57,421 nt of DNA from a virus: the IMG/VR virus record IMGVR_UViG_3300031566_000036, positions 1-57,421 of that record. One strand, written 5' to 3'. Every line of letters begins with the position of its first letter. The first letter of the stretch is position 1. The notes beneath the pieces were generated by a model, which ran no database searches, was not told the origin of the DNA, and saw nothing but the letters and a program-made list of their open reading frames with translations. Positions 1 to 25,508 of this stretch are shown one piece after another. The translations under genes and the position numbers were made by a program.

Positions 1-153
1 GAAGCCTTCGGGCATGGCTTCTTTGAATGGGTACACTTCGGGATTTTTGTCGCCTACAAGGTCGAAGACTACTCGCCCGTGCTTCTTCGCCTTTTCGGGT
101 GTAGGCTTAACGGTTGGTTTTGCCGGCTCAGCGGCGGGTTTTACTCTTGCCAT
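1..153 (-). CDS. Small hypothetical protein, C-terminus cut by window edge
   Basis: An open frame starts with ATG at 153 and runs off the left edge, giving 51 visible residues that begin MARVKPAAEPAK. A ribosome-binding site, AAGGAGC, lies about 8 bases upstream, and hammerhead A lies just upstream of that. The first 25 residues are rich in Lys, Ala and Pro and look disordered. The visible part ends in MPEGF, a pentapeptide that also occurs in the 572-955 protein, so the two may be distant relatives. Function unknown. Confidence 0.75.
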   Translation of the reverse strand, partial: MARVKPAAEPAKPTVKPTPEKAKKHGRVVFDLVGDKNPEVYPFKEAMPEGF

Positions 154-190
154 AAATTTTGCTCCTTATTCAAAAATTTCGTTGTTGGCC

Positions 191-246
191 GTCTCATCAG
201 CAACGGTCGCCAATCCGTTGGACGCGGACTCCGTTCCGCGTTTCGA
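191..246 (-). ncRNA. Type II hammerhead ribozyme A
   Basis: On the coding strand the order is GAAA (244-241), stem III of 6 bp (240-235 with 228-223) with a 6-nt loop, U-C (222-221), stem I of 6 bp (220-215 with 206-201) with an 8-nt loop, then CUGAUGA (200-194). That is the hammerhead core opened at stem II. Predicted cleavage is between 221 and 220, which leaves a 67-nt leader before the ATG at 153. Stem II is the weakest of the six copies: only two Watson-Crick pairs are evident. The element begins almost at the stop codon of the upstream gene. Confidence 0.85.
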
Positions 247-248
247 TT

Positions 249-422
249 TTAAAAGATTTCAATCATTCGATTCAGTTCGATGAGCGCCCTTGCATAGCAC
301 TTGTCGCCCTCATCACCAAAGGTGTTTACAAAAATCATCAAGCATTCATCATGCTCTTCAGTGTCACTGCCTTCTTTTTGCAAAGCTACGCTCTGCTTGA
401 AGATGTCATCGTCCGTAAGCAT
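249..422 (-). CDS. Small acidic hypothetical protein (57 aa)
   Basis: The chosen start is the ATG at 422 (MLTDDDIFKQSV), because an AGGAGA site lies about 8 bases upstream. The longer frame back to 542 would read through hammerhead B and has no ribosome-binding site. The product is acidic, with two cysteines and a helical C-terminus (ARALIELNRMIEIF). No family recognised. Its stop codon abuts hammerhead A, and hammerhead B lies 60 nt upstream of its start, so the predicted processed mRNA (482-221) carries this gene alone. Confidence 0.75.
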   Translation of the reverse strand: MLTDDDIFKQSVALQKEGSDTEEHDECLMIFVNTFGDEGDKCYARALIELNRMIEIF

Positions 423-449
423 TTTATTTCTCCTATAAAAATGTTTGAC

Positions 450-517
450 TTGTCTCATCAGGCAGTGGAAGTCACTCACTACGACGCGGTACAGTCCGTT
501 GCACCGCGTTTCGACAA
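450..517 (-). ncRNA. Type II hammerhead ribozyme B
   Basis: Core elements on the coding strand: GAAA (512-509), stem III 6 bp (508-503 with 490-485) with a 12-nt loop, U-C (484-483), stem I 6 bp including one G-U (482-477 with 467-462) with a 9-nt loop, then CUGAUGA (461-455). Stem II is a perfect 5-bp helix, UUGUC with GACAA (517-513 with 454-450). That differs from the AGUC/GACU pair in copies C and E, so stem II covaries. Predicted cleavage is between 483 and 482, 60 nt upstream of the ATG at 422. Confidence 0.93.
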
Positions 518-541
518 TCATCCATGATTTAATATAGACCA

Positions 542-558
542 ACCAGCTTCTTGCTGGT
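542..558 (-). other. Short hairpin in 3' UTR
   Basis: A perfect 6-bp inverted repeat (542-547 with 553-558) with a 5-nt loop sits 14 bases after the stop of the 572-955 gene. No U-run follows, so it is not a convincing terminator. It may protect the 3' end of the upstream message before hammerhead B. Confidence 0.3.
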
Positions 559-571
559 GGTAGCCCAACAG

Positions 572-955
572 CTATTCAGCCGCGGCTGCAGCGATAAGAG
601 CCTCAACGTCAATCCCTTGAGCGATGAGCTGCGCTTTGAGTTCGTTCATCTTGCTGTTCAAGCGTACAATTTGTTTCTTCTTGCGACGGTCAGCAGCTGA
701 ACCCATCGTTCGGCACTCTTCGGCCTGTGCTCTGAAGCCAGCCATCTTGTACGCCATTTCCTCGGCGCGGTGGTCATAGTAGAGCGCCTCAGTTGTGAAG
801 TTTCTTTTCTTCAAAGGTTTGTAGTCTTTGAAGTTGAATCCTTCGGGCATGACGACGTTATACGCTTCTTTGGCAATCTTGAAGCCTTCGCGTTTCTTGT
901 TGACCTTTACTGTTTTGACTTCGACTGTGATTGCTTTTTTGTTTGACTTTGCCAT
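572..955 (-). CDS. Basic coiled-coil hypothetical protein (127 aa)
   Basis: Starts at ATG 955 behind an AGGAGAT ribosome-binding site. The N-terminal 25 residues are very Lys-rich (MAKSNKKAITVEVKTVKV). The C-terminal third (about 85-125) is a charged helix ending in an Ala-rich tail. The N-terminus and the C-terminal helix resemble the 1439-1765 protein (MAKSTKKTTV..., KRRETLEAQLAAVQAKLEKL), and both genes share the same longer 5' leader, so they look like paralogs that moved with their leaders. A small nucleic-acid-binding protein is possible from charge alone. No family recognised. Confidence 0.85.
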   Translation of the reverse strand: MAKSNKKAITVEVKTVKVNKKREGFKIAKEAYNVVMPEGFNFKDYKPLKKRNFTTEALYYDHRAEEMAYKMAGFRAQAEECRTMGSAADRRKKKQIVRLNSKMNELKAQLIAQGIDVEALIAAAAAE

Positions 956-994
956 TGTACTATCTCCTATGTTTGAAGTTTTGAAACTTTTCTG

Positions 995-1051
995 AGTCTC
1001 ATCAGTGTCACCTTATAGTGACAGACGCGGAACGGATTCCGCGTTTCGACT
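995..1051 (-). ncRNA. Type II hammerhead ribozyme C
   Basis: Core on the coding strand: stem II 5' strand AGUC (1051-1048), GAAA (1047-1044), stem III 7 bp (1043-1037 with 1032-1026) closed by a 4-nt loop, U-C (1025-1024), stem I 5 bp (1023-1019 with 1010-1006) with an 8-nt loop, CUGAUGA (1005-999), stem II 3' strand GACU (998-995). Stem II has four perfect pairs. Predicted cleavage is between 1024 and 1023, 68 nt before the ATG at 955. A further short hairpin (AAGUUU...AAACUU) lies between the ribozyme and the ribosome-binding site. Confidence 0.94.
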
Positions 1052-1056
1052 TTAAT

Positions 1057-1302
1057 CTATTCTTGACAATACTTTGTACCGTCTTCGTCGATGCATCCAC
1101 AATTATCGCATGTGATTGGTTTGATTAAAGCGGTGCGAATCTTTTTCATCGCTTTACTCCAACTCTCTTCAGCTTTTTGCAATTGCAATTCGATGTCGCC
1201 AATCATTACTGCTTCTGTGTTAGGATTGTCAGTAACAAAATTCGTCTTGCGTAAAAGTTCGAAAAGATATTCAACCTGTTCTTTTGTAAGTTCTACGTTC
1301 AT
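1057..1302 (-). CDS. Small hypothetical protein with C-terminal Cys cluster (81 aa)
   Basis: Starts at ATG 1302 behind AGGAGATATTAAA. Two predicted amphipathic helices (MNVELTKEQVEYLFELLRK and about residues 38-60) are followed by a C-terminal CDNCGC...C pattern that could bind a metal ion. No family recognised. Hammerhead D sits upstream and hammerhead C begins 5 bases after its stop, so the predicted processed RNA (1361-1024, 338 nt) carries only this gene. Confidence 0.82.
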   Translation of the reverse strand: MNVELTKEQVEYLFELLRKTNFVTDNPNTEAVMIGDIELQLQKAEESWSKAMKKIRTALIKPITCDNCGCIDEDGTKYCQE

Positions 1303-1331
1303 TTTAATATCTCCTATAAAAATGTTTTGGC

Positions 1332-1399
1332 TTGTCTCATCAGCACGAGCTCTTACTCGTGGACGCCCGACATGAGGTAATCATCGGGCGTTTCGACTT
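1332..1399 (-). ncRNA. Type II hammerhead ribozyme D
   Basis: Core on the coding strand: GAAA (1394-1391), stem III 7 bp (1390-1384 with 1370-1364) with a 13-nt loop, U-C (1363-1362), stem I 6 bp (1361-1356 with 1349-1344) with a 6-nt loop, CUGAUGA (1343-1337), stem II of three pairs (GUC with GAC) plus mismatches. Predicted cleavage is between 1362 and 1361, 59 nt upstream of the ATG at 1302. Its stem I and III sequences differ from every other copy yet pair perfectly. Confidence 0.92.
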
Positions 1400-1438
1400 G
1401 CATGCCGTCCGTGACATTACTACAATCCTTGGAGATTA

Positions 1439-1765
1439 TTATGAATCCAACTTTTCGAGCTTTGCTTGAACGGCGGCGAGTTGAGCTTCCAACGTCTCGC
1501 GACGTTTCGTAATGCGCTCAGCTTTCTTTGCTTCGCGTTCGTCCTTAGTCGCTTCGAGGATGATTGCCTTCTCGACGTTATTCGCAATCGTTCCAATGCG
1601 AGCAGCAACCCGTACGATTTGTGGAGCAAACCGCACCATGATGTCGTCCGATACTCCAACGATGCAAATTGATTTTGCAATGTCTTTCAGGTTGGCGACT
1701 GTGCCGGGAGTTGTGTCAATGTTTGTGTTGGTTCGGACCGTGGTTTTCTTTGTTGACTTTGCCAT
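1439..1765 (-). CDS. Coiled-coil hypothetical protein (108 aa)
   Basis: Starts at ATG 1765 (MAKSTKKTTVRT) behind an AGGAGATAGT site. It has a basic, Thr-rich N-terminus, a central hydrophobic stretch with several Ile and Val (about 28-65), and a charged C-terminal helix (about 70-106) with a coiled-coil look. It resembles the 572-955 protein at both ends. Two overlapping minus-frame alternatives and a plus-strand frame exist here, but only this one has a ribosome-binding site. Function unknown. Confidence 0.85.
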   Translation of the reverse strand: MAKSTKKTTVRTNTNIDTTPGTVANLKDIAKSICIVGVSDDIMVRFAPQIVRVAARIGTIANNVEKAIILEATKDEREAKKAERITKRRETLEAQLAAVQAKLEKLDS

Positions 1766-1804
1766 TTTACTATCTCCTATGTTTGGGGTTTTGAAACTTT
1801 TCTG

Positions 1805-1861
1805 AGTCTCATCAGCACTGCCTTATAACAGTGGACGCGACTTCCGTGTCGCGTTTCGACT
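1805..1861 (-). ncRNA. Type II hammerhead ribozyme E
   Basis: Core on the coding strand: AGUC (1861-1858), GAAA (1857-1854), stem III 6 bp (1853-1848 with 1841-1836) with a 6-nt loop, U-C (1835-1834), stem I 5 bp (1833-1829 with 1820-1816) with an 8-nt loop, CUGAUGA (1815-1809), GACU (1808-1805). Predicted cleavage is between 1834 and 1833, 68 nt upstream of the ATG at 1765. The element starts immediately after the stop of the 1863-2057 gene. Confidence 0.94.
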
Positions 1862-1862
1862 T

Positions 1863-2057
1863 TCATTTTGCAACTTGACCAATGCCACATTCATTTTTGA
1901 ATTTGAGCGCTTGGTGTTTTTTAGCGAAGCCAAACAACAATCGTCCGTCGTTGTCAGCATGGCCAAAAAATTCACCATGATGTTTTTTGCAAGCTTGATG
2001 AAATGTGTGAAGCAATACGTTTTCGTTTCTGCCTGCTTGAATAAATACCTTTGCCAT
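1863..2057 (-). CDS. Small hypothetical protein (64 aa)
   Basis: The start chosen is ATG 2057 (MAKVFIQAGRN), because AGGAGATATTAAA precedes it. The longer frame to 2108 would run through the leader and hairpin. The product is basic and His-rich (HTFHQACKKHHGEFFGHAD). No family recognised. It is the only gene of the array with no hammerhead directly upstream. Instead it has a 9-bp hairpin at 2101-2126, so it probably shares one processed RNA (2447-1834) with the 2138-2386 gene. Confidence 0.8.
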   Translation of the reverse strand: MAKVFIQAGRNENVLLHTFHQACKKHHGEFFGHADNDGRLLFGFAKKHQALKFKNECGIGQVAK

Positions 2058-2085
2058 TTTAATATCTCCTATAAAAATAGTTAGG

Positions 2086-2126
2086 TTAAAAAACATGAGT
2101 CCGAGCAATGATATTCGATTGCTCGG
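2086..2126 (-). terminator. 9-bp hairpin with downstream U-run (attenuator or weak terminator)
   Basis: A perfect 9-bp inverted repeat (2101-2109 with 2118-2126) with an 8-nt loop is followed on the coding strand by seven bases and then a run of six U (2087-2092). It replaces the hammerhead in this one intergenic gap. The distance between stem and U-run is long for an intrinsic terminator, so partial termination or an RNA stabiliser are equally possible. Confidence 0.4.
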
Positions 2127-2137
2127 TGTCGCGTCTT

Positions 2138-2386
2138 TTAATCTTCAAGAATTTCGATGTTTTCACAAAGGTCAAGATCTTGCCAAAACATTTGAATCAT
2201 TTGACAAAGTTCTTCAAACGTTCCAGTGTATTTGACTACGGGCCAACATCCACCCGGTCCAACTTCTTGGACAACTTCAACATCAACATCGTTGTCTTGA
2301 CAATATTGTTGTAGGTAACAATTTCTGTCGAGATTCATCGTGTCAAGTTCAACACAGCTAATTTTGTCGTTTCTTTTTGTTGCCAT
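2138..2386 (-). CDS. Small acidic Cys-rich hypothetical protein (82 aa)
   Basis: Starts at ATG 2386 behind AGGAGATTGAATT. The product is acidic and has six cysteines (for example CVELD, CYLQQYC, GGCW, ELCQM, LCEN). The middle contains VEVVQEVGPGGCWPVVKYTG, which reads as two beta strands, followed by a helix (FEELCQMIQMFWQDL), so a small alpha/beta fold is plausible. No family recognised. It is the first gene with a clear ribosome-binding site after the promoter at 2777-2804, with hammerhead F between them. Confidence 0.83.
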   Translation of the reverse strand: MATKRNDKISCVELDTMNLDRNCYLQQYCQDNDVDVEVVQEVGPGGCWPVVKYTGTFEELCQMIQMFWQDLDLCENIEILED

Positions 2387-2414
2387 AATTCAATCTCCTA
2401 TAAAAATGTTTGGC

Positions 2415-2480
2415 TTGTCTCATCAGCACGGTTTGCCAATTTCCGTGGAACCGCGAGATGGCTCTCGCGGGTTTCGACTT
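2415..2480 (-). ncRNA. Type II hammerhead ribozyme F (variant)
   Basis: Core on the coding strand: GAAA (2475-2472), stem III with a 7-bp helix (2470-2464 with 2457-2451) and a 6-nt loop, then UU-C ending at 2448, stem I 5 bp (2447-2443 with 2431-2427) with an 11-nt loop, CUGAUGA (2426-2420), and stem II GUC with GAC. Unlike the other copies, a C-U mismatch follows the A15.1-U16.1 pair, so the cleavage triplet is UUC rather than GUC. Predicted cleavage is between 2448 and 2447, 61 nt before the ATG at 2386. It may be slower than the others. Confidence 0.85.
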
Positions 2481-2538
2481 TAGGAGATTAGTGACTTATT
2501 CTTTTACTGCTTGCTCACAAGCAACAGCAGTGACAGTA

Positions 2539-2586
2539 GTCCAACTCAGAGTCCCAGGATATTCTATCCGTCCAACTTAGAGTCCC
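2539..2586. repeat. 17-bp direct repeat pair, 31-bp period
   Basis: Two copies of a 17-base sequence, GTCCAACTYAGAGTCCC on the plus strand, occur at 2539-2555 and 2570-2586 with one difference. A small palindrome (GGATA-TTC-TATCC) lies between them. They are in the leader between the promoter at 2777-2804 and hammerhead F. They could be binding sites for a regulator or a local duplication. Confidence 0.6.
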
Positions 2587-2776: not shown

Positions 2777-2804
2777 ATTATACCATATAGTATAAAAATG
2801 TAAA
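2777..2804 (-). promoter_or_regulatory. Sigma70-like promoter P1 of the hammerhead gene array
   Basis: On the coding strand, TTTACA (2804-2799), a 16-base spacer and TATAAT (2782-2777) match the bacterial sigma70 consensus at 11 of 12 positions. T-rich sequence lies upstream and the next promoter-like site is far away. Transcription would begin near 2770 and run through the hammerhead array. The same GTTTACA/TATAAT pair, with a 17-base spacer, occurs at 16701-16729, which supports a shared host-polymerase promoter type. Confidence 0.75.
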
Positions 2805-5482: not shown

Positions 5483-5950
5483 TTAGCGTAGTGACTTCCA
5501 ATGTTTTAATAGTACTAACTGCGTTTCTATTCTTAAATTTAACTCGTCGATAATATCAAGTTTGCATTCTTTTAATAAGTCTACACCATCTAAACTTCTG
5601 TACTCTTCAGACCAAATAACACCTACGATACTTGAGCAATTTAATATCGCCCTTGCACAAGCTTCACAAGGCGACTTTGTTGTATATAATAAACTCGGCT
5701 TTGCAAAGTCGTTGTTGAACTTTATAACAGCGTTAAGTTCAGCATGAATGCATCCGCAGTTACCTGGCACTCCACTGCAAGAATCATTTGGTAAATGTTT
5801 CGATGGCCCGTTATATCCAATCGAGTATATTGCGGAGCAATCCGTAGGAAAAATAATTGCACCTACTTGTAAACGCTTACATACCGACAATGACTCTAAT
5901 AACTTTCCCATTTGAATAAACGTTTTTAGTTTTTTCAAATACCGTTTCAT
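5483..5950 (-). CDS. dCMP deaminase-like zinc deaminase
   Basis: The zinc-binding and catalytic motifs of cytidine/deoxycytidylate deaminases are present: CIHAELNAVI (HAE) and KSPCEACARAI (PCxxC). The length of 155 residues is normal. The family converts dCMP to dUMP, the substrate of thymidylate synthase, whose family member lies two genes upstream. The start at 5950 follows AAGGAACAATAGCT. The presence of this gene beside a TS-like enzyme with a dCMP-type Asp is notable: the two would compete for dCMP or serve parallel pathways. Confidence 0.93.
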   Translation of the reverse strand: MKRYLKKLKTFIQMGKLLESLSVCKRLQVGAIIFPTDCSAIYSIGYNGPSKHLPNDSCSGVPGNCGCIHAELNAVIKFNNDFAKPSLLYTTKSPCEACARAILNCSSIVGVIWSEEYRSLDGVDLLKECKLDIIDELNLRIETQLVLLKHWKSLR

Positions 5951-5952
5951 AG

Positions 5953-6552
5953 CTATTGTTCCTTAAATAGGCGATTCTTCCCAGAACCATCATCGGTTAT
6001 TTCCCAGCATATAAACTTTTCTTGTTTCCAACCTACTGGGACATTGTAATACGAAAATTCAAAAATCACATTTCTTAACTCAGTTCTTCGGCAGTGCCAT
6101 ACACAAAGGTCATGTTTATTTCCGCAGTTTATTTTTTGGCCTACCGCATAAACAATCGTTTCGTCAATCTTACCTTCGTTTGTCACTGTTCGTACAGTGC
6201 CGGGTCCGTTTGCAATTTCCATAACAGCCGTGCCTTGCTCTTGAATTAAAATGCAACCTCTGAACCCGCAATCCTTTGGGTTAATTTTATCAGCAACGAT
6301 TAATTGTAGGCCAGTGTCGAACCACTTGGACGCTTTTTTAAGTAGTATGAACTTGGGTATCGTTGGAAAGTGCGGCGCTATTAAGTTTGGTCCCAGTTCA
6401 TCACGATAAAATGTTCGAACGCTGAATGAATTTCGTTGACCCACAAAGTCACTGATTTTTAATTCCTTCATCGAGGTTATAAGCACACTATTCTCTGCGT
6501 TCAGACCAAACTTTCGCGGCAGTTGAACTCGCTGAAATTTATTTCTTCGCAT
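5953..6552 (-). CDS. Hypothetical protein in nucleotide module (199 aa)
   Basis: The start chosen is ATG 6552 (MRRNKFQRVQL), six bases inside a TTG-initiated frame, with AAAGGGA upstream. It overlaps the end of the TS-like gene by 14 bases and stops two bases before the deaminase start, so it is in the same operon. The protein has several aromatic and Cys-containing strands in its C-terminal half (INCGNKHDLCVWHC, FEFSYYNVPVGW, EKFICWEITDD), suggesting a beta-rich fold, possibly metal-binding. I do not recognise the family. Confidence 0.85.
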   Translation of the reverse strand: MRRNKFQRVQLPRKFGLNAENSVLITSMKELKISDFVGQRNSFSVRTFYRDELGPNLIAPHFPTIPKFILLKKASKWFDTGLQLIVADKINPKDCGFRGCILIQEQGTAVMEIANGPGTVRTVTNEGKIDETIVYAVGQKINCGNKHDLCVWHCRRTELRNVIFEFSYYNVPVGWKQEKFICWEITDDGSGKNRLFKEQ

Positions 6553-7480
6553 TTTCAAATCCCTTTCGTAATACCGGTGAAAAGATTACGTTCTCATCAT
6601 GACCAAACTTTCGAGCACAACACGACACTAAATCGTATAGCATTCCTTCGCCCAATGAACGTTGTTCTGCGATTCCGTTAAGCCCGTTTCGATACCTGCC
6701 TTCAGCACACAACGCAGTTTGGATTTGTGAACGCCAAACTCCGATGTCTCGCGGCCAGTCATGTCGTAAGTCTATGTTAGCGCGATACTGCCGACCTATG
6801 GGAACAAGCAGTGATTCTTTGGCAGCTTGCCAATTCTTTTCGTACAGATGCATGCTACCAACTTGATGCGTGTAGGTTCCGTACTTAACATTTAATGCAT
6901 CGGCGATTAATCGCTGCAAACAAGTAAATGCGAATATATCGTACGGTGTACCGAGCCATGCATCATTGCTACGCATTGTAGCAATTAAATGTAATGCACC
7001 ATTCCGTATCAAAAATTGTAGGCTCATGGTACATGGCAAGTCTTTATGGTCAGCAAGATATGCGTGCTCTAAGTCACTACCTTGCCAAAATGAAATAAGC
7101 GCTTGCCGTGAATTCGGATTTTTATGCAAAACATCAATCAATAAACTAAGTTGATTGAACTGTTTTATTCGAGCGCCGTACGCGCCAAACGCAACGCCAT
7201 CTTCTGCGAAATTTACGTACTGCGGCGCATATGCAATTAACATTTCGATTTTACCCGTGCCCGATAAGTACCACAGTGTTTCAGCCGCGGCATACATTGG
7301 TGACAGTTTACGTCGTGGGTTTAATAAAAACGTTGACTCAATATTTAGTAACGTCGCACTATACCCAGTGACTTCTTTTATTTGCCCCACGCGACTTGGC
7401 ATTTCCCGTCCCGTCGCAATGATATTATGAACTACGTTTAACCATAATTCATCAATGTTACTGTACGCATTATTTCCCAT
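6539..7480 (-). CDS. Thymidylate synthase-family dCMP/dUMP (hydroxy)methyltransferase
   Basis: A 313-residue member of the thymidylate synthase fold. The nucleophile is Cys150 (LPCTMSLQF). Phosphate-binding Arg170 is in MRSNDAWLG, and HLY near residue 210 matches the nucleotide-binding His-x-Tyr. The residue that reads the pyrimidine (Asn177 in E. coli ThyA) falls on Asp181 in GTPYDIFAF. In the T4 dCMP hydroxymethylase family that residue is Asp, and Asn-to-Asp is known to shift ThyA toward dCMP. The enzyme may therefore make a modified cytosine nucleotide rather than dTMP. The start at 7480 follows AAGGAG. It is clustered with a deaminase, a MazG-like protein and a C5 methyltransferase. Confidence 0.9.
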   Translation of the reverse strand: MGNNAYSNIDELWLNVVHNIIATGREMPSRVGQIKEVTGYSATLLNIESTFLLNPRRKLSPMYAAAETLWYLSGTGKIEMLIAYAPQYVNFAEDGVAFGAYGARIKQFNQLSLLIDVLHKNPNSRQALISFWQGSDLEHAYLADHKDLPCTMSLQFLIRNGALHLIATMRSNDAWLGTPYDIFAFTCLQRLIADALNVKYGTYTHQVGSMHLYEKNWQAAKESLLVPIGRQYRANIDLRHDWPRDIGVWRSQIQTALCAEGRYRNGLNGIAEQRSLGEGMLYDLVSCCARKFGHDENVIFSPVLRKGFENAKK

Positions 7481-8666
7481 CTTGTGACTCCTTAAACGGC
7501 GGTAAATAATTAGTTAGTTTGAATACTTTTTCAATAGGTTTATCAGTATGATTCTCACCGACCCATTGTCCAGTGTGATGATTGTATGTTGTACTAAAAT
7601 CATCATCACCCCACATATCATTTAAGTACAACTTTATTTGTTCGCCGAGCCAAGCACCAGTCGCGGGTACTACACCTTTTGCGATTTGAGCAATGGGCTG
7701 TGCTCCAACTGGTACAAAGTTTTTCGGCCAACCCATTAACGCAGCGGTCTCTAATGCGGTTATTGGTCGGTCTAAAGTAGGATGAATATTATTGCCAAAA
7801 CTTGAAGCTATTGTTGGGCAATGTCCGTTCCACTTTAAACGGCAAGGCGCATGCAAACTAAATGGTACCTCAGACAAACGATACACATATTTATCATAGT
7901 GATACGGGCTAACTCTTTTCATTTCTTCAAGGCGCTTGCGAGCAACATCATGATAGGACTCACCTTGCCGCAAAATTGGAATCATTACTTTTTCTTGAGC
8001 ATTAAACTCTGTATAAGTATCAGGTGTCCAAGGATTGTTATTGCCCCAAAGTTTGCCGCCCACAGTTTTTCGACCTAAAAGTGGTAATAACACATCGCCT
8101 ACCGTCGTCCGAAACTCTGGCAAGTTTGGTCGCATGACATTAAAGTTTTTGTTATTACGATACGCTACAAAGAAATATCTTCGGCGTTTCTGCGCATTGC
8201 CTTCAGCCGCAGTATTTACAAACAGATGGGCTATCCGATAACCTGCGGGAACAAATAAGTCATCCCGTAAAATGTCAAGTAATGGCCGACCAACGGTGTA
8301 AGCTTGCTGCACGCTTTCAAACGCAATTAAATCAAAGTCAGCATGTATTCCAAATCTGCATAAATCCCAAATGTCTCTTGTAGGTTTCGCGTTTGGTCCA
8401 CGCACAGTAGAATTAGAACCTGCACTATAACTTGAGAATGATGTGCATCGCGGATTGCCATAACAAAATGAACAGCCTTCCCATTCACTTTTATAGTCAT
8501 CCCAACCTCGCCACGTATCAGCGTTCATGAACTTCGTCTTATGCGCCTTGCACGTTTCTCCACCGAAGTTGTGAATCTCTAATTGACCTACGACCGGCAT
8601 CACAGTTTTCATGCCCATTGTAAACCCACCCGCAAAACAGTGAACTCCTACACCTTTATGTTTCAT
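7470..8666 (-). CDS. Divergent DNA cytosine-C5 methyltransferase
   Basis: The start chosen is ATG 8666 (MKHKGVGVHC) because GGAGG lies 7 bases upstream. The longer frame overlaps the 8656-8844 gene. The 398-residue protein has motif I (CFAGGFTMGM, about 10-19), a motif IV-like GNPRCTSFS with catalytic Cys74 (usual form GGPPCQxFS), a motif VI-like FESV (Glu117, usual ENV), and motif VIII QKRRRYFF (159-166). It ends with a motif X-like TGAWLGEQIK. The changes in motifs IV and VI make it divergent but still probably active. Likely role: modification of phage DNA against host restriction. It overlaps the TS-like gene by 11 bases. Confidence 0.85.
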   Translation of the reverse strand: MKHKGVGVHCFAGGFTMGMKTVMPVVGQLEIHNFGGETCKAHKTKFMNADTWRGWDDYKSEWEGCSFCYGNPRCTSFSSYSAGSNSTVRGPNAKPTRDIWDLCRFGIHADFDLIAFESVQQAYTVGRPLLDILRDDLFVPAGYRIAHLFVNTAAEGNAQKRRRYFFVAYRNNKNFNVMRPNLPEFRTTVGDVLLPLLGRKTVGGKLWGNNNPWTPDTYTEFNAQEKVMIPILRQGESYHDVARKRLEEMKRVSPYHYDKYVYRLSEVPFSLHAPCRLKWNGHCPTIASSFGNNIHPTLDRPITALETAALMGWPKNFVPVGAQPIAQIAKGVVPATGAWLGEQIKLYLNDMWGDDDFSTTYNHHTGQWVGENHTDKPIEKVFKLTNYLPPFKESQDGK

Positions 8667-8844
8667 TTGTGGCCTCCGAACATATTCCGTCCAATTTACA
8701 TTTCGCGTCATCACGTCCATGTTTCGCACCATGTATAAAAGCCATAATAAAAGCTGGCTTAAAAACTTTCTCGCATAAAAAGTCAGCGTGCGCTTTAGCA
8801 TCTATTTGGTACTTTTCTTTTAACTCATCTGATAACTCTGCCAT
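8656..8844 (-). CDS. Small hypothetical protein (62 aa)
   Basis: Starts at ATG 8844 (MAELSDELKEKY) behind AAGGAGACCG and overlaps the methyltransferase start by 11 bases. Mostly helical and charged, with the motif FIMAFIHGAKHGRDD near the middle, a pattern seen in many small phage proteins of unknown function. No function assigned. Confidence 0.8.
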   Translation of the reverse strand: MAELSDELKEKYQIDAKAHADFLCEKVFKPAFIMAFIHGAKHGRDDAKCKLDGICSEATNET

Positions 8845-9593
8845 TATTCGGTCTCCTTAAGCCATTCTGCAATTTTCTGCATTGATTTCGCGGGTAAAAA
8901 TAAAGTGTCCCATCGACCTTTAGTTCCTGCACATGCTGACCAACCACCAAAAGTAAACTCACGTACATCATCAGCCCGTATACTTTCGCAACCTGTCACG
9001 CCACCCTTGATAATCCAAACCCACCACTCGCCGGGATAAGTAGATGACTCTTTTTTATTAACAAGCACTTTCATTGTCACTTGCTTATCTGTCACACAAT
9101 TTGTACGGATAGCATCGACCTCCACTCCACGATGCAAATCAAGTACTCGCTTCAAATTCGGCGGGACGTAGTTTGGCCCCTTATCCCGTAGACGAATATC
9201 ATCTTTTTTACGTGGAGCTTTTGTTAAGTTCGAAGCACATACTTCGTCGACTGCTTGAGGCAACGGAAGGCCAAACGCAATCGCTGTTCCCTTAGTGACA
9301 AACTCTAAATCGGCTAAACCGTCGAGCGTTTCAAGCTCATCACAGTTCGCTAATCCAAGAATTGCCTCGCCAAGTTCTTCGACCATCAATTGTGTTCGAG
9401 CAAGTCGTGGGTCTGTGCACGTTTTCATCATTTCTTCCATTATCGTTGCAAGTTCCAACAGCGCGTTAGCGACATCCTTCTCAAGAAACTCACTCATGAT
9501 AACATGCTCTTTAAGTTCAGTCAAGTTTTCGTTAATCGAGAAGCCTTGCTTGCAGTGAAACAACTTCGTTTTTTCAAATTGTTTGTCGTTCAT
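8844..9593 (-). CDS. MazG-like NTP pyrophosphohydrolase with extra C-terminal region
   Basis: Starts at ATG 9593 behind AAAGGACAGAG. Residues about 33-140 match the all-alpha NTP pyrophosphatase (MazG-like) pattern: an acidic VEELGE motif, then DGLADLEFVTKGTAIAFGLP, followed by AVDEVCASNLTKA. The family hydrolyses NTPs or dNTPs to monophosphates. Residues about 155-249 are not part of that fold: a beta-rich, Trp-containing segment (YPGEWWVWIIKGGVTGC) of unknown role. In this cluster it could supply dCMP or dUMP, or remove unmodified dCTP. Confidence 0.82.
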   Translation of the reverse strand: MNDKQFEKTKLFHCKQGFSINENLTELKEHVIMSEFLEKDVANALLELATIMEEMMKTCTDPRLARTQLMVEELGEAILGLANCDELETLDGLADLEFVTKGTAIAFGLPLPQAVDEVCASNLTKAPRKKDDIRLRDKGPNYVPPNLKRVLDLHRGVEVDAIRTNCVTDKQVTMKVLVNKKESSTYPGEWWVWIIKGGVTGCESIRADDVREFTFGGWSACAGTKGRWDTLFLPAKSMQKIAEWLKETE

Positions 9594-16744: not shown

Positions 16745-16826
16745 TTTTGAAAAATAAATAATGAGCACACAACTCAGAGTTTGGCGAGCAAAATCACTAT
16801 TGGAAAGGACCTGAGTGCGCGCTCAT
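16745..16826 (-). terminator. Nested-stem terminator of the glycan operon
   Basis: Two nested inverted repeats, ATGAGC with GCTCAT (about 16761-16766 with 16821-16826) and ACTCAG with CTGAGT (about 16772-16777 with 16811-16816), form one long stem with an internal loop. On the coding strand the stem is followed by UUAUUUAUUUUU. The stem contains the end of the 16823-17410 gene. It separates the glycan operon from promoter P2. Confidence 0.65.
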
Positions 16827-17410
16827 TTAAGCAAAGATTTATTCTTTCGAACTTCACGAGAAGCTTGAAAATGTACGATGATTGGACTTTCAACTTTCTC
16901 ATTCATTGTTTCGTTTATCATACAGTACTCAGGAGGGAGATGATAAAAGTCATCATGTAATATTTTCGCCAAAGACTTTTGGTCCCACACCCGCGGGTTC
17001 TTTTCACATTCTTTTGCCCACTCATCGACAATGCCACGAACTTTTTCATTATTTCTTAAGTAAACCGTTCCGCTTAATACCTCTGCTGGGCATTTCGAGT
17101 TTCTTTGGTACAGCTTACGCTCAAACAAATGAACTGCAACATCACCGTCAAGTGTATCAAATAAAATAGGGTAGGCGCGGAACTCTGCGTCGCAGTCTAC
17201 CCATACAATATCGGTCTCTGGGAAGGCCTTCAAACATGCTGCTAAGAAGGTTGGCTTATAGCATGTATTTTTATACCAGTCCTTTAAGTTAGGGACCCCA
17301 CTGACATGATGGAGGATGCTATGCCGCCTTAAAGACTTCACGAAGTGCTCAGCGTACCGTGCATAAAAAGTTCCGAGTGTATAGTAACTAACTACCATCC
17401 ATTTATTCAT
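16823..17410 (-). CDS. Glycosyltransferase-like protein (GT-A, DxD)
   Basis: The start chosen is ATG 17410 (MNKWMVVSYYTLG), preceded by GGAG at 5 bases and overlapping the DUF2061 stop by 8 bases. The 195-residue protein begins with a Rossmann-like strand and has a DIVWVDCDAEF segment whose D-x-D would bind a metal ion and nucleotide sugar, followed by LSGTVYLRNNEK and WDQKSLAKIL, the layout of small nucleotide-diphospho-sugar transferases. Donor and acceptor unknown. Last gene of the glycan operon. Confidence 0.78.
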   Translation of the reverse strand: MNKWMVVSYYTLGTFYARYAEHFVKSLRRHSILHHVSGVPNLKDWYKNTCYKPTFLAACLKAFPETDIVWVDCDAEFRAYPILFDTLDGDVAVHLFERKLYQRNSKCPAEVLSGTVYLRNNEKVRGIVDEWAKECEKNPRVWDQKSLAKILHDDFYHLPPEYCMINETMNEKVESPIIVHFQASREVRKNKSLLK

Positions 17411-17780
17411 TTCGACTCCATGCCCAATCATAAAAGAAATATAGAATTAACTTTGATTGAATGTATGTTAAAGTTATCCACGTCATTTGTTTAACGTCAC
17501 CTGTGACAAAATATGTAATCAGTCCAAGAATGACATTACCTAAAATAACTTCGTAAGTAATGGCTTTGATTGCATATTTGAGTTTAGGTGTCATTTTAGA
17601 TTTTGACCATGCTCGTTCATGTAAGTAAAACACTACAAGGAAAATTCCGTGATGTATCAGTGTAGTCAATGACATTTGTATCCAGTTTCTTGTAAATGCA
17701 TATGTTATTCCAGCTAACCAAAATACACCAATGACTCTCCACATTACGCTTTTTAATATTGACTTTTTATGACTGTCCAT
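17403..17780 (-). CDS. DUF2061 small integral membrane protein
   Basis: The start chosen is ATG 17780 (MDSHKKSILKSV) behind AAGGAG, and it overlaps the cytidylyltransferase gene by 14 bases. The protein is a tandem duplication: two halves each carry K(S/A)(V/I)xx(R/E)VI, two hydrophobic segments and an R/DWAW ending (HERAW, YDWAW). This matches DUF2061, so four short membrane segments are expected in the inner membrane. Role unknown. Neighbouring genes suggest envelope-glycan modification. Confidence 0.8.
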   Translation of the reverse strand: MDSHKKSILKSVMWRVIGVFWLAGITYAFTRNWIQMSLTTLIHHGIFLVVFYLHERAWSKSKMTPKLKYAIKAITYEVILGNVILGLITYFVTGDVKQMTWITLTYIQSKLILYFFYDWAWSRNE

Positions 17781-18180
17781 TTTTAATCTCCTTTTTAATG
17801 TGCGTTGAAGAATGTTCAGGAAAATACGGTATACAAATAATACGACCATTCAAATCATTCATCGCTTGCTCAACTTTAGACTCAGGAACATGACTATCAC
17901 TCTCCATTAATATATCTGGCTTTAATGCTAAAATATTTTTTAACGGTGAGTACTCTTTTTGTGCTACAACTAAATCAATGTGTTTAACGCTTCTTGCTAA
18001 TTCGACACGTTCTTCAAACGATATAATGGGTTTTGGCTTTTTCTCCATCGCAGCTTTATCTGTTAAAATACCAACAATCAAACGCCCATCAGGGCCGGCC
18101 ATTGCTTTAGCATTTTGTAGCATTTCTAAATGACCTTTGTGAACGATGTCTAAAACATAGTAAGAATAAACTATAATCAT
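17767..18180 (-). CDS. Cytidylyltransferase-like nucleotidyltransferase
   Basis: 137 residues. The HxGH nucleotide-binding motif appears as DIVHKGHLEML, and the C-terminal SSTHIKKEI matches the (I)STxxI motif of TagD/RfaE-type cytidylyltransferases. The family activates an alcohol phosphate or sugar phosphate with CTP (for example to CDP-glycerol). The ATG at 18180 overlaps the stop of the sulfatase-fold gene (ATGA). A GTG nine bases upstream is possible. The pairing with a sulfatase/phosphotransferase-fold gene suggests decoration of a glycan with a phospho-group. Confidence 0.87.
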   Translation of the reverse strand: MIIVYSYYVLDIVHKGHLEMLQNAKAMAGPDGRLIVGILTDKAAMEKKPKPIISFEERVELARSVKHIDLVVAQKEYSPLKNILALKPDILMESDSHVPESKVEQAMNDLNGRIICIPYFPEHSSTHIKKEIKNGQS

Positions 18181-19193
18181 TTTACCCACTCAAAATTTAA
18201 CTTTAATTGCTCTACAATGTTTTCGTCAACTCCAGACTCAAACATAAACGTCAGTTCATGATTAAAATAGCTATAGTTTCTTTGAATAAACTTATCGTCT
18301 GGCTCGTGATAAGTTACGTACTTGAAAATAGGGTTTAAGTATTTACAAGCGATTGCTGTTGTTGATTTTTTAGAGTCAATATTTAATCTACAATCCTCAG
18401 TAAAGTAAAAATCATGAATAGGCCAGTCATTATGTACTGCGTAATAATAAAAATCTGTTGCACTGATAAAGTTTGACATGGGCAATACTCTCGCAGGCCT
18501 ATTGTCTTTTATCACTGCCCAAGTTACAAAGTTGTGTTCTTGCGGATAACCTCCAAGCTCAGGAAAACGCCAATGCCCATGGTCACTGAACACCCAAAAT
18601 AACGCGTCAGGCTCATTAAAATTCCAAAGGCCTAAAATCTCTAAGAAATACTTACTTGCTTTTCTTTGTCGAACTTTTAAGTCACTCTCATCCATACTTA
18701 ATTCACAAGCGTCGTGTGCGTGTACGTAATTCAATACGTACATTACATCTTCGTCGCTTGCTTGAATTTTTTCAATATATCTTTGTTGCGAATCAATATC
18801 ATAGTCTACATCGACTCGCGTATAAATGTTTTGATGCCTTAAATACCCAAAGCACCCGCAAAGAGTTGCAGGATTCATCACTTCAAGTTTACAGTTTAAT
18901 TTGAATGGCACTGTATCTTTAAGCCATGACCAATTTGGCAGCGCTTGCTGCGGGCGGTTTATCATTAGCCCGACTGCCTTTGTTACATCTTCGCATGCAT
19001 CCATCCAACTCGTATATCCAATGCCGTGTGATTTTAATTCAGATGAGTGTTTACCAGTGAGCATCTGAGTCATTGTCTCTATCGTAGCACAACCACCTAT
19101 TTGCCTTACCAAGTGACCGCTAACTTTATCCCGCATTTGAAAAACTTCAGAACAAAATGGTAAGCCATCAAATTTTATACAATATATTTTCAT
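18177..19193 (-). CDS. Sulfatase/alkaline-phosphatase-fold enzyme
   Basis: 338 residues. The segment ATIETMTQMLTGKHSSEL resembles the active-site loop of the sulfatase/phosphoglycerol-transferase superfamily, with a Thr in the nucleophile region. VLNYVHAHDA and FWVFSDHGHWR supply the metal-binding His and Asp (SDHG is typical). No membrane segments, so it is a soluble family member. The usual Cys/Ser maturation motif of true sulfatases is not evident, which favours a phosphotransferase or hydrolase. It overlaps the FkbM gene by 4 bases. Confidence 0.75.
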   Translation of the reverse strand: MKIYCIKFDGLPFCSEVFQMRDKVSGHLVRQIGGCATIETMTQMLTGKHSSELKSHGIGYTSWMDACEDVTKAVGLMINRPQQALPNWSWLKDTVPFKLNCKLEVMNPATLCGCFGYLRHQNIYTRVDVDYDIDSQQRYIEKIQASDEDVMYVLNYVHAHDACELSMDESDLKVRQRKASKYFLEILGLWNFNEPDALFWVFSDHGHWRFPELGGYPQEHNFVTWAVIKDNRPARVLPMSNFISATDFYYYAVHNDWPIHDFYFTEDCRLNIDSKKSTTAIACKYLNPIFKYVTYHEPDDKFIQRNYSYFNHELTFMFESGVDENIVEQLKLNFEWVK

Positions 19194-19843
19194 TCTTTAA
19201 TTGCAAGGCAATCTCCAGTTATAACATACATATTAGTTTTAAAGTCGCGCCAATGTAAAATTTCAACACTGCTTTCATCATATACTTTAAAACCGTGCGA
19301 GTTTAATAATTCCCATATCTGTTGAAAAGAAATTCCCGCATCGTAAAAGCAAGCACCATATTCAAACTGTACATAATCAATGCGACCTTCATTTAGCATG
19401 TCTTTTGCACCTTCAAGCACAAATAATTCGTTGCCTTCAACATCTATTTTAAGAAAGTTTATTTTAAGTATGCCACGCTCTTTACAATACTCGTCTATCG
19501 TTGTTACATCTATAACTATTTCGTTGGGCTTTAAACTATGTAGCATCTCTAATTCTGAGCTACGCCTAAACTCTGTAGATAGTCTTGGCTCAGACGGGTA
19601 ATAGTAAAAGCAAGTTTGACCAATCCTATTTGACAATGCTAATTTATTATGAATTGCGTTCGTTGTTTTTAATACTTCAAATGAAAAGGGCGACGGCTCA
19701 AACTGATGAATCACTACATCTTCATGGCATTGCAACACCTCGTTGGTCCACTCGCCTACACAAGCGCCGACATCAAACACAACATCATTTGATTTGATAT
19801 ACCGTTCAATGTTTAAAATTTCATTATTTGAAATCGTTGGCAT
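19190..19843 (-). CDS. FkbM-family SAM methyltransferase
   Basis: 217 residues. SAM-binding motif I is VVFDVGACVGEWT (about 20-32), then HQFEPSPFSFEVLK and the FkbM hallmark LKIDVEGNELFVLEGA. FkbM enzymes O-methylate sugars and other small molecules. Starts at ATG 19843 overlapping the previous stop, with AAAGG upstream. Probable role: O-methylation of a glycan built by the neighbouring glycosyltransferases. Confidence 0.92.
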   Translation of the reverse strand: MPTISNNEILNIERYIKSNDVVFDVGACVGEWTNEVLQCHEDVVIHQFEPSPFSFEVLKTTNAIHNKLALSNRIGQTCFYYYPSEPRLSTEFRRSSELEMLHSLKPNEIVIDVTTIDEYCKERGILKINFLKIDVEGNELFVLEGAKDMLNEGRIDYVQFEYGACFYDAGISFQQIWELLNSHGFKVYDESSVEILHWRDFKTNMYVITGDCLAIKE

Positions 19844-20394
19844 TATAGTACCTTTGCTAAAATTATATCTTTTGGAAAGTGTGAACTGTCGATGTTTGTT
19901 ATTTCATACGCGGGATTTATTTCTTTGAGCTTTGCGACTATCGTCTCTTCATGAAGATTGTGCCAAGTAGGCTTATCTCCAGTAAAGATGCGTCGGTCGT
20001 CAATAAGAATCGTATGAGTTTTAATCGGATGATTTTTAATCGCTTCCAACTCTTGTAGCACAGGTTGCGCTTCTGTTAAAATTTCTGGGTTGTCTGACTC
20101 TGGAATGTTCGCGTCATAATGCGCATCAAGCCAAAATAAAATAGGATCGTTTATATTTTTTAATAATTCGGCTAAAACCTCACCACTGTTTCCTTGAAGT
20201 ACTTTCACGTAAGCTACGCTTTTGAATCTTGCACGACATCGCCCGAGTCTGTTCGCGTAAAACTCAATACTGTAAATAGAGTTAAACCCAGCATCGACGG
20301 CCGCTTGAATTCCGTCGCCGATATACGAACCTGTTTCAATGAAAGTTTTTATACTTCCCTTATGTGCCTTAAATATTTCACTTGTCACTGGCAT
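19843..20394 (-). CDS. Class I methyltransferase-like protein
   Basis: The start chosen is ATG 20394 (MPVTSEIFKAHKG) behind AAAGGAAACAC. 183 residues. FIETGSYIGDGIQAAVDAGF is a SAM-binding-like loop, SIEFYANR the acidic strand 2, and FWLDAHYDAN a later acidic motif. It resembles small family members in phage and bacterial surface-polysaccharide clusters, which probably modify sugars. Catalytic residues are not assignable. Confidence 0.75.
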   Translation of the reverse strand: MPVTSEIFKAHKGSIKTFIETGSYIGDGIQAAVDAGFNSIYSIEFYANRLGRCRARFKSVAYVKVLQGNSGEVLAELLKNINDPILFWLDAHYDANIPESDNPEILTEAQPVLQELEAIKNHPIKTHTILIDDRRIFTGDKPTWHNLHEETIVAKLKEINPAYEITNIDSSHFPKDIILAKVL

Positions 20395-20404
20395 GTGTTT
20401 CCTT

Positions 20405-21091
20405 TCATAAATGAATGTAAGTGTGTAATTTTGAATGACGGAACATTGATAAAGCTCCATCGACATAAAGAACTGTTGAAGGTTTTCTTATTGCTGCGGC
20501 TAAAGTAATAGAGCCAGTAAGCACACCATAAAAGTGCTTGCACGAATATATAATATCACAAAGGTGACACAAATTATCCGCATGAATAGTTTTAACATCG
20601 AATGGCGCGCTTTTCCGAAAAAGTGACTTCATTTGGTGTGTTACTGCTACGCTGTTATTCTTAAAATACGTTCTGAGTGTTTTTTGATTCGGGATTCCTT
20701 TGCCACTAAAACTATTCCATTCTAAAATTATTGCATCTTTTAATTCGGGTATCAATTTTGGCTTGTAGTAAACCTCAGGTTCTTGAAAACGAATGCCTGT
20801 ATCGGGCACTCCATAAAAGTCAGACACTGCATCGAGAAGATTTTTACCTTCAGTTACTTCCCCGAATTGTGGGTATATAACATCATCATCAACAAACCCG
20901 TCAAAGAATGGATTTAATTCCCATACTAAATGTTTTGTTTCTGGGTTCAAAAACTTTGAAGAGTTAGTCACTACGACTTTGTCAAACACACCACTCTCTT
21001 TTGCAACACGAGGTAGGTGTGACATAAACAAATGGTCACCGAGTCCGCCGTATGGATTTTTAATAACTAATGTTTTAATTTTTTTACCCAA
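20405..21091 (-). CDS. Glycosyltransferase family 9-like protein
   Basis: 228 residues. The beginning (TLVIKNPYGGLGDHLFMSHLPRVAKE) is the typical GT-B start of LPS heptosyltransferase-like proteins, and GVLTGSITLAAAIRKPSTVLYVDG matches the donor-binding end. The start is a TTG at 21091 inside the dehydratase gene (25-base overlap). No ATG precedes the conserved domain, so the non-ATG start is likely real and translation coupled. Confidence 0.75.
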   Translation of the reverse strand: MGKKIKTLVIKNPYGGLGDHLFMSHLPRVAKESGVFDKVVVTNSSKFLNPETKHLVWELNPFFDGFVDDDVIYPQFGEVTEGKNLLDAVSDFYGVPDTGIRFQEPEVYYKPKLIPELKDAIILEWNSFSGKGIPNQKTLRTYFKNNSVAVTHQMKSLFRKSAPFDVKTIHADNLCHLCDIIYSCKHFYGVLTGSITLAAAIRKPSTVLYVDGALSMFRHSKLHTYIHL

Positions 21092-22053
21092 TAATTCAGT
21101 AAGTCACTCATAGTTGTTTCTAACGAGTATTGTTGTTGCCAATCAATTACACTTTTTAATCGAGTGAGGTCACCAATTTGAATCTCAATATCAATCGGTC
21201 GATAAAATGGTTTATGTATAACTTGCTCAATACCTTTCAATCCGGATGCTGCGATTAGCAAATCAGTAAAATGCTGCATCTCATGAACGCCTTCACCGCA
21301 AACATTATAAACTCCGCGGATTCTTTTTGACATAAGTAAGTAATATGCGTTTACGCAATCTCTAACGTCCATTACTACTCTTTTTGTTTTGAGATTTCCA
21401 ATTAACAGTTTATAATTAAATCCTTGCTGCCCGTTCATCATCTTTGCAATTTGAAACGCGTCACTGCTTATCGAAAAGTTATGCCCGCGCCTTGGACCCG
21501 TGTGACTAAAGGCCCGCGTGATAAAACCTGAGATGATTCCATTTCTTATTCGCTCTTGCACGTATAGGTCCATCGCAGCTTTACTAACGGCGTACGGATT
21601 TATGGGATGCAACGCCATGTCTTCTTTTAATAATCCAACTGTTTTACAGTCGTTGCCGTATACTTCAGATGTAGAGCAGAAATGGAAGTGACACGTAGTC
21701 TGTGTTTTCTCTATTGCATCAATTAAATTCGCTGTTCCCATCACGTTTGAATTAAAAGTGTCTATTGGATTTTTGAAACTTGTAGGTGGATGACTCTGTG
21801 CGGCTAAATGAAAAACGCCATCTAACTCAATTTCAGACAATGCTTGCCGTATTGATGCATAATTTGTCAAGTCACCATATACCCAATTGATTGTATTTAT
21901 TTCGTGGGCGCTAAGAATGTCTAACAAGTCCATTTCTCTGCCGTTGCTGCCACGAATCAGACCATAAACTTTATCGCCTTTACTTAATAGGAGTTTAGCT
22001 AAGTGCGGTCCTGCAAATCCAGTGGTGCCCGTAATTAAATAGTTCATTATCAC
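21067..22053 (-). CDS. gmd: GDP-mannose 4,6-dehydratase-like NAD-dependent dehydratase
   Basis: 328 residues of the extended short-chain dehydrogenase family: GTTGFAGPHL nucleotide loop (8-17), FHLAAQSH, CSTSEVYG, and YAVSK catalytic Tyr/Lys, with SHTGPRRG as in GMD enzymes. The family makes GDP-4-keto-6-deoxymannose, precursor of GDP-fucose, GDP-rhamnose or GDP-perosamine. No separate fucose synthase is seen, so the next step may be host-encoded. The start is GTG at 22053 or ATG at 22047. Confidence 0.92.
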   Translation of the reverse strand: MIMNYLITGTTGFAGPHLAKLLLSKGDKVYGLIRGSNGREMDLLDILSAHEINTINWVYGDLTNYASIRQALSEIELDGVFHLAAQSHPPTSFKNPIDTFNSNVMGTANLIDAIEKTQTTCHFHFCSTSEVYGNDCKTVGLLKEDMALHPINPYAVSKAAMDLYVQERIRNGIISGFITRAFSHTGPRRGHNFSISSDAFQIAKMMNGQQGFNYKLLIGNLKTKRVVMDVRDCVNAYYLLMSKRIRGVYNVCGEGVHEMQHFTDLLIAASGLKGIEQVIHKPFYRPIDIEIQIGDLTRLKSVIDWQQQYSLETTMSDLLNYWVKKLKH

Positions 22054-22784
22054 TTTCCAAAAATAAAGTTATTGTTGCATGCTACAATCGATGATTCATT
22101 TCCTTCTACAAACTCAACGTCGTTCAACCCAACTTTGTTTCCGACTACTGGACTGTATACTTTGTTCTTATTAAAAAATCCCGCCCAAAAACTAAAAGTT
22201 GAATTTGCTCTAAACAAATGTTCAGCACTTATCATTTCAAAAAAGTCCGGCAAAAACATTAAGTCACCGTCTAAGTCTCGCCATTTCACTTGCGTTTCTT
22301 CCGTCTTTAAAAAAACATCATGTTCTCGAACACCAAACTTTTCAAAAGCTCTTTGATATGATAACATAGACACAATACAAAAAACATTCGCGTATAAAGT
22401 CTGGTAGTCACCGCGTCGCATGTGAGCAACAGCATATGACTTTAAATTAACAAAGTACTCAAGCCACTTATCTTGGAACGTAAACCATTCACGAAGTTTA
22501 GCCTCAGATAAAATATTTATGAATTCTTGTTTTTGAAAATAGCCGAACAAATCAATATTGACTTCGCCAAATAGAACTTTATCAACTGGTGTTCTTTTAA
22601 GACGCTTAGAGATAGGCCGATGCGAAACGTTCTTAAAAATCTTTTCGCCAATCCAGCTTGGAATTTCTAAAGTACAGTTATACTTTTCAGCGTACGCTCT
22701 TGCAAACGCGTACTGAAACATTTGATTGCCGAACCGACCAAATTTTCCTAACTGCGTAAATTGTATTATGTTATGCGCCGACAT
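22050..22784 (-). CDS. Alpha-1,2-fucosyltransferase-like (GT11) enzyme
   Basis: 244 residues with the GT11 signature motifs: GRFGNQMFQYAFARAYAEK near the N-terminus, HMRRGDY (HxRRxD) in the middle and FRANSTFSFWAGFF (SNSTFSWW-like) near the C-terminus. GT11 enzymes transfer fucose from GDP-fucose to a galactose or similar acceptor. The gene sits directly before the GDP-mannose dehydratase gene, which makes the needed nucleotide-sugar precursor. It overlaps the GT25-like gene by 14 bases. Confidence 0.93.
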   Translation of the reverse strand: MSAHNIIQFTQLGKFGRFGNQMFQYAFARAYAEKYNCTLEIPSWIGEKIFKNVSHRPISKRLKRTPVDKVLFGEVNIDLFGYFQKQEFINILSEAKLREWFTFQDKWLEYFVNLKSYAVAHMRRGDYQTLYANVFCIVSMLSYQRAFEKFGVREHDVFLKTEETQVKWRDLDGDLMFLPDFFEMISAEHLFRANSTFSFWAGFFNKNKVYSPVVGNKVGLNDVEFVEGNESSIVACNNNFIFGK

Positions 22785-24843: not shown

Positions 24844-24847
24844 TTTC

Positions 24848-25408: not shown

Positions 25409-25508
25409 CCATGTCCTTTCCAAGAGGTTTTGATGAGAATGTATATAATTATATGGTTGGTTATCTTTAAGTCATCTACGGGTCTTCCAGGGCGCTTAAA
25501 CCTCGTGT
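25409..25508. other. 100-bp non-coding gap in the glycan operon
   Basis: The largest internal gap of the glycan operon. It holds an AT-rich core (TATATAATTATATGG on the plus strand), but no convincing promoter with both hexamers or terminator hairpin. Nothing else is seen. Confidence 0.4.

What the first reader, a model, noticed from the sequence alone, without database searches (positions are those of the whole stretch)
153..2481. Array of six type II hammerhead ribozymes between small genes
Six intergenic elements at 191-246, 450-517, 995-1051, 1332-1399, 1805-1861 and 2415-2480 all carry, on the coding strand, GAAA - stem III hairpin - UC - stem I hairpin - CUGAUGA in that order, which is the full hammerhead core opened at stem II. 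The constant bases (plus strand TCATCAG, GA, TTTC) are identical in all six, while stems I and III differ in sequence and keep pairing. Single type II hammerheads are known in bacteria and phages. A tandem set placed before nearly every gene of one operon is not something I know to be described.
Basis: partly seen in the sequence, partly recalled or inferred. Interest (0 to 1): 0.96.

Follow-up and report, generated by a model that had tools for sequence, protein, structure and literature searches.

The report
Six self-cutting ribozymes separate phage genes
In this uncultured phage, six of the seven small genes in a row are each preceded by a short RNA (a type II hammerhead ribozyme) predicted to cut itself, so one long message would be chopped into single-gene pieces without any protein enzyme; hammerheads clustered around single phage genes were reported in 2011, and arrays of up to 13 turn up in other phages here.

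Summary
All six minus-strand elements (191-247, 452-515, 996-1050, 1334-1397, 1806-1860, 2417-2478) are complete type II hammerheads. A covariance model trained only on elements from other contigs finds exactly these six in 57 kb (37.5-48.4 bits, E 3.5e-14 to 2e-10; next best 9.8 bits). Rfam's own model misses them at its cut-off; one reaches 35.0 against 37. Three also have the loop I/3'-tail pseudoknot typical of type II hammerheads. Reservation: 2417-2478 has a mismatch next to the cleavage site.

The claim that such sets are undescribed is wrong. Perreault et al. 2011 reported clustered hammerheads flanking single genes in prophages, proposed mRNA processing, and showed that triple arrays cleave.

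Most likely function: each element cuts in cis between cistrons, leaving a 3'-hairpin end and a 5'-hydroxyl hairpin leader. Neighbouring half-ribozymes do not co-vary, which argues against selected mRNA circularisation. One of the seven gaps carries a long plain hairpin instead.

The parts
2417..2478 (-). Type II hammerhead 1 (before gene A); predicted cleavage after 2448; pseudoknot UUGGC/GCCAA; C/U mismatch at 15.2/16.2
   Evidence: R1 37.5 bits, E 2e-10; pseudoknot
2138..2386 (-). Gene A, 82 aa, unknown function (weak phrog_5922)
2083..2144 (-). Gap A/B without a hammerhead: long imperfect hairpin (27-nt arms)
   Evidence: z -7.1
1863..2057 (-). Gene B, 64 aa, unknown
1806..1860 (-). Type II hammerhead 2 (before gene C); predicted cleavage after 1834
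   Evidence: R1 43.9 bits, E 1.3e-12
1439..1765 (-). Gene C, 108 aa, unknown
1334..1397 (-). Type II hammerhead 3 (before gene D); predicted cleavage after 1362
   Evidence: R1 48.4 bits, E 3.5e-14; RF02276 35.0 bits
1057..1302 (-). Gene D, 81 aa, unknown
996..1050 (-). Type II hammerhead 4 (before gene E); predicted cleavage after 1024
   Evidence: R1 47.5 bits, E 7.3e-14
572..955 (-). Gene E, 127 aa, unknown
   Evidence: no relative in viral contigs
452..515 (-). Type II hammerhead 5 (before gene F); predicted cleavage after 483; pseudoknot UGACUU/AAGUCA
   Evidence: R1 45.5 bits, E 3.5e-13; pseudoknot
249..422 (-). Gene F, 57 aa, unknown
191..247 (-). Type II hammerhead 6 (before gene G); predicted cleavage after 221; pseudoknot UUGGC/GCCAA; stem II 2 bp
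   Evidence: R1 42.0 bits, E 5.7e-12; pseudoknot
1..153 (-). Gene G, cut off by the contig end
   Evidence: sequence
2777..2804 (-). Promoter-like site upstream of the array (TTTACA-16-TATAAT, TG before the -10), candidate start of the operon transcript
   Evidence: consensus match only

Best explanation
The six elements are cis-acting type II hammerhead ribozymes that fill the gaps of a small-gene operon. After transcription of one long minus-strand RNA, each ribozyme folds from its own two halves and cuts once, 3' of its C17 (window positions 221, 483, 1024, 1362, 1834, 2448). The upstream mRNA would keep a short 3' tail ending in the stem III hairpin with a 2',3'-cyclic phosphate. The downstream mRNA would start with a 5'-OH on the stem I hairpin (in three copies tied to its tail by a pseudoknot), with the ribozyme ending about 30-40 nt before its own start codon in the window. 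The phage thus makes mostly single-gene mRNAs with structured ends without RNase III or RNase E. Shown here: identity, position, strand, gene-by-gene arrangement, recurrence in other phages. Inferred: actual cleavage, end protection, benefit to gene expression.
For: Independent covariance model finds exactly the six. In other contigs 209 of 263 raw motif matches have both stems of at least 5 bp, 0.3 expected after shuffling. Pseudoknot of at least 4 bp in 112 of 177 elements, 33 expected, and three in the window. All multi-element contigs carry all copies on one strand, 35/35 viral and 21/21 genomic. Sense stop codon ends -1 to +10 nt from the element in 239 of 308, antisense 24. Sense start codon with Shine-Dalgarno follows at a median 24.5 nt in 166 of 186, antisense 32. 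Arrays mostly alternate ORF-ribozyme-ORF-ribozyme. Stem II pairs within its own element in 170 of 174. Rfam gives 23 above-threshold Hammerhead_II hits in ten array loci. Precedent: triple arrays cleave in vitro and in E. coli, and the HF1/HF2 mRNA 5' end maps to a hammerhead site (PMC3088659).
Against: No cleavage data for any of these six. Element 2417-2478 has a stem III mismatch beside the cleavage site and may be slow. Minimum-energy folds of four of the six (996, 1806, 191, 2417) do not show the full three-way junction, although nearest-neighbour energies ignore hammerhead tertiary contacts. One of seven gaps has no ribozyme, so a ribozyme is not indispensable at each gap. The two nearest relatives found in viral contigs (DNA polymerase 43-44% identical) and the one in GenBank show no hammerhead match. 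No relatives of the tested small gene 572-955 were found, so orthologous gaps cannot be compared.
Confidence: 0.78

Rival explanations
1. Circular mRNAs: the two ends of each released mRNA carry complementary halves of a hammerhead (5' stem I-CUGAUGA-GAC, 3' GUC-GAAA-stem III), and these re-join around the gene and are ligated into a circular message.
For: In the window stem II is GUC/GAC in five of six, so neighbouring halves could pair. Type II opens at stem II, which puts the gene in that loop.
Against: In arrays where stem II deviates, it co-varies within the element (170/174) but pairs with the neighbour fully in only about half of the deviating neighbour pairs. Perreault et al. looked for circular or spliced products and detected none.
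Confidence: 0.06
2. Regulated switches: cleavage of each leader is controlled (by a translating ribosome at the abutting stop codon, Mg2+, or a ligand) and sets expression of the downstream gene.
For: Elements sit directly at stop codons, with stop UAG sharing its G with stem II in 59 of 308, so a terminating ribosome would probably cover the 5' part of the ribozyme. Leaders end close to the Shine-Dalgarno sequence.
Against: No conserved extra domain; loops vary freely. Abutment is equally explained by genome compaction.
Confidence: 0.12
3. Relics or inert hairpins: repeated intergenic hairpins spread by leader duplication; catalysis is not selected.
For: Leaders are copied within the operon (87% over 83 nt for 935-1017 and 1745-1827). 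One gap has a plain hairpin and one copy a mismatch.
Against: Core identical in all six while stems diverge and stay paired; pseudoknots kept; strict core in hundreds of unrelated copies.
Confidence: 0.04

Closest known systems
Rfam RF02276 Hammerhead_II (type II hammerhead ribozyme)
   Same: Same core order GAAA-stem III-UH-stem I-CUGAUGA, short stem II, loop I/3'-tail pseudoknot in three copies.
   Different: Five copies give no RF02276 match and the sixth scores just below Rfam's cut-off (35.0 against 37); longer stem III; three copies lack the pseudoknot and carry a UAAG-type loop I.
Clustered hammerheads of prophages (Agrobacterium tumefaciens ardA triple array, Clostridium scindens, Azorhizobium caulinodans; Perreault et al. 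2011)
   Same: Several ribozymes on one polycistronic transcript flanking single genes; proposed processing to gene-length mRNAs.
   Different: The best-documented array in the text I read has three ribozymes; here six in series, and 6-13 in other viral contigs, with the stop-codon abutment measured.
RNase III hairpins between phage T7 early genes (from general knowledge, not tested)
   Same: Intercistronic RNA structures that yield single-gene mRNAs with hairpin ends.
   Different: T7 needs a host protein; here the RNA is predicted to cut itself. The odd gap 2083-2144 looks more like such a hairpin.

Membership tests
Type II hammerhead ribozyme (RF02276) | Core GAAA ... UH ... CUGANGA in type II order | tested here: met
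   All six; no UG at the cleavage site
Type II hammerhead ribozyme (RF02276) | Stems I and III closed by hairpin loops, stem II open | tested here: met
   2417-2478 with one internal mismatch in stem III; 191-247 with 2-bp stem II
Type II hammerhead ribozyme (RF02276) | Rfam gathering score (37 bits) | tested here: not met
   No hit at gathering; best 35.0 bits. This is a search cut-off, not a biochemical criterion; an independent model gives 37.5-48.4 bits
Type II hammerhead ribozyme (RF02276) | Loop I/3'-tail pseudoknot (typical of most, not all) | tested here: met
   Three of six: 191, 452, 2417
Type II hammerhead ribozyme (RF02276) | Self-cleavage 3' of H17 | not testable with these tools
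   Needs in vitro transcription or RNA-end mapping
Clustered phage hammerhead arrays (Perreault 2011) | Several hammerheads on one strand flanking individual genes of a phage | tested here: met
   phage by terminase, tape measure and DNA polymerase
Clustered phage hammerhead arrays (Perreault 2011) | Cleavage of a long transcript at all sites | not testable with these tools
   Shown in the paper for other arrays

The most novel reading that the evidence does not exclude
Gene-by-gene hammerhead punctuation (6-13 ribozymes per operon, packed between stop codon and Shine-Dalgarno) is a widespread way for phages to process mRNA without host nucleases, possibly with cleavage gated by the ribosome terminating at the fused stop codon.
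Probability: 0.35. Interest if true: 0.8.

Novelty: new member of a known kind. Interest (0 to 1): 0.52.

Why it matters
The role of hammerhead ribozymes in bacteria and phages is still open. A long array with one ribozyme per gene, and a measured fixed position between stop codon and ribosome-binding site across hundreds of copies, makes the mRNA-processing idea testable: it predicts a ladder of single-gene mRNAs with 5'-OH ends at named nucleotides. It would also show phages that replace host RNase processing by built-in RNA catalysis.

Tried and rejected
Rfam at the gathering score gave nothing in the window, so a model was built from outside elements. The DNA polymerase gave only two distant viral relatives without hammerheads, and small gene 572-955 gave none, so orthologous-gap comparison in this phage was not possible. 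Window array DNA has no match in GenBank phages; three proteins from other arrays had none either, so no cultured phage with a long array was found. mRNA circularisation by neighbouring halves was tested by stem II covariation and disfavoured. Rfam found no other ribozyme class in ten array loci. A decayed hammerhead in gap 2058-2137 was considered: it lacks CUGAUGA and the model gives no hit, so it is treated as a different hairpin.

Full report
The window is an IMG/VR virus record of 57,421 bases. It carries a large terminase, a tape measure protein, a primase/helicase and a family A DNA polymerase, so it is a tailed phage. At its left end, on the minus strand and downstream of the DNA polymerase gene, lies a row of seven small genes (A to G; the last is cut by the contig end) after a long non-coding stretch with a good promoter-like site at 2804-2777 (consensus match only). 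Six of the seven gene starts are preceded by the elements in question.

Check of the observation. The open pattern GAAAC-N(8-38)-GTC-N(8-38)-CTGATGA occurs five times against 0.10 expected; the sixth copy (2417-2478) has UUC at the cleavage triplet. Rfam at its gathering score finds nothing. With relaxed settings 1325-1398 matches Hammerhead_II with 35.0 bits (cut-off 37, E 9.8e-5) and 973-1031 matches Hammerhead_3 weakly. With filters off it finds the six window elements (37.5-48.4 bits, E 3.5e-14 to 2e-10); the next best place in 57 kb has 9.8 bits.

The training elements are real, not chosen into shape. Of 263 distinct raw motif matches in viral and prokaryotic contigs, taken without asking for pairing, 209 have both stems of at least 5 bp; shuffling the arms gives 0.3. 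The loop I/3'-tail pseudoknot that Perreault et al. describe for type II is present in 112 of 177 elements against 33 expected. In the window it is present at 191 (UUGGC/GCCAA), 452 (UGACUU/AAGUCA) and 2417 (UUGGC/GCCAA). The other three have an 18-nt stem I with a UAAG-like loop, resembling a short-stem I subclass seen elsewhere. So the array mixes two subclasses.

Surroundings and relatives. Searching whole records, arrays of 13, 11, 10, 8, 8, 7 and 6 hammerheads appear in other viral contigs (records behind L012, L124, L091, L036, L122, L084, L037), and Rfam's own model gives 23 above-threshold Hammerhead_II hits in ten such loci. All 35 viral and 21 genomic multi-element stretches have every copy on one strand. 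In the six longest arrays examined, small ORFs and ribozymes mostly alternate. Over 186 elements, 166 are followed on the same strand by a start codon with a Shine-Dalgarno motif at a median of 24.5 nt, against 32 on the antisense side. Over 308 elements, 239 have a sense stop codon ending within -1 to +10 nt of stem II, against 24 antisense; the commonest case is a UAG stop that shares its G with stem II (59 copies). The ribozyme thus fills the whole gap between stop codon and ribosome-binding site. These surveys used a simple ORF finder and a motif-selected, row-capped sample, so the percentages are not population estimates.

How it most likely works. Each element cuts in cis. Stem II, when it departs from GUC/GAC, stays paired within its own element (170 of 174) but not reliably with the neighbour's half, which fits autonomous cutting and argues against selection for re-joining of neighbouring halves into circular mRNAs. 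Cutting would give single-gene mRNAs with a stem III hairpin and cyclic phosphate at the 3' end and a 5'-OH stem I hairpin at the 5' end. From general knowledge, such ends are poor substrates for 5'-monophosphate-dependent decay and for 3' exonucleases. Cleavage itself and its effect are inferred for this phage. For other phages there is direct support: tandem arrays cleave in vitro, a triple array cleaves in E. coli, and in haloviruses HF1/HF2 an mRNA 5' end maps to a hammerhead site 13 nt before a start codon (PMC3088659).

Weak points. Copy 2417-2478 has a mismatch beside the cleavage site, and copy 191-247 has a 2-bp stem II. Simple energy folding recovers the three-way junction only in part. 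Gap A/B (2083-2144) has no hammerhead but a long imperfect hairpin (z -7.1). It may be an RNase III-type site or a plain stabilising hairpin; I cannot tell. Leaders with their ribozymes have been copied inside the operon (87% over 83 nt between 935-1017 and 1745-1827), which suggests how such arrays grow.

Novelty. The kind is known: Perreault et al. [quoted passage not shown] The papers I could search and read (open-access library only) do not, in the parts I saw, report arrays of this length or the stop-codon abutment, but absence from that library is weak evidence. I file the window's array as a new member of a known kind, with the scale and geometry as the useful addition.

Noticed in passing
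window 2083-2144: The one gap of the operon without a hammerhead carries a 27-nt-arm imperfect hairpin (z -7.1), in the place where the others have a ribozyme.
   Followed up: partly
window 222-241 and 1025-1044: Stem-loops III of two ribozymes are inverted copies of each other (95%), as if one hairpin had been flipped.
   Followed up: no
window 2539-2556 and 2570-2587: Two direct copies of an 18-nt sequence (GTCCAACTYAGAGTCCCA) 31 nt apart in the leader between promoter-like site and first ribozyme.
   Followed up: no
window 5483-9593: dCMP deaminase, thymidylate-synthase-like, C5 methylase and MazG-like genes in a row, suggesting a phage with modified pyrimidines in its DNA.
   Followed up: no
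window 16823-26138: Long block that includes sugar-nucleotide and glycosyltransferase-like genes (GDP-mannose 4,6-dehydratase at 21067-22053) between replication and tail genes.
   Followed up: no
window 25509-26138, 47088-47729, 54087-54728: Proteins sharing a 'DVFIIGGGxSLxxFD'-like start (the first more loosely), apparently paralogues scattered among other genes.
   Followed up: no
L202 805-4887: A contig binned as Candidatus Lokiarchaeota carries four type II hammerheads around ORFs that by eye look ubiquitin-like, JAB-like and ThiF/E1-like; possibly a mis-binned phage or mobile element.
   Followed up: partly
L047 7107, L068 11300, L082 8872: Homologous elements show a compensatory change in the pseudoknot (loop GACC/tail GGTC against loop AACC/tail GGTT).
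   Followed up: yes
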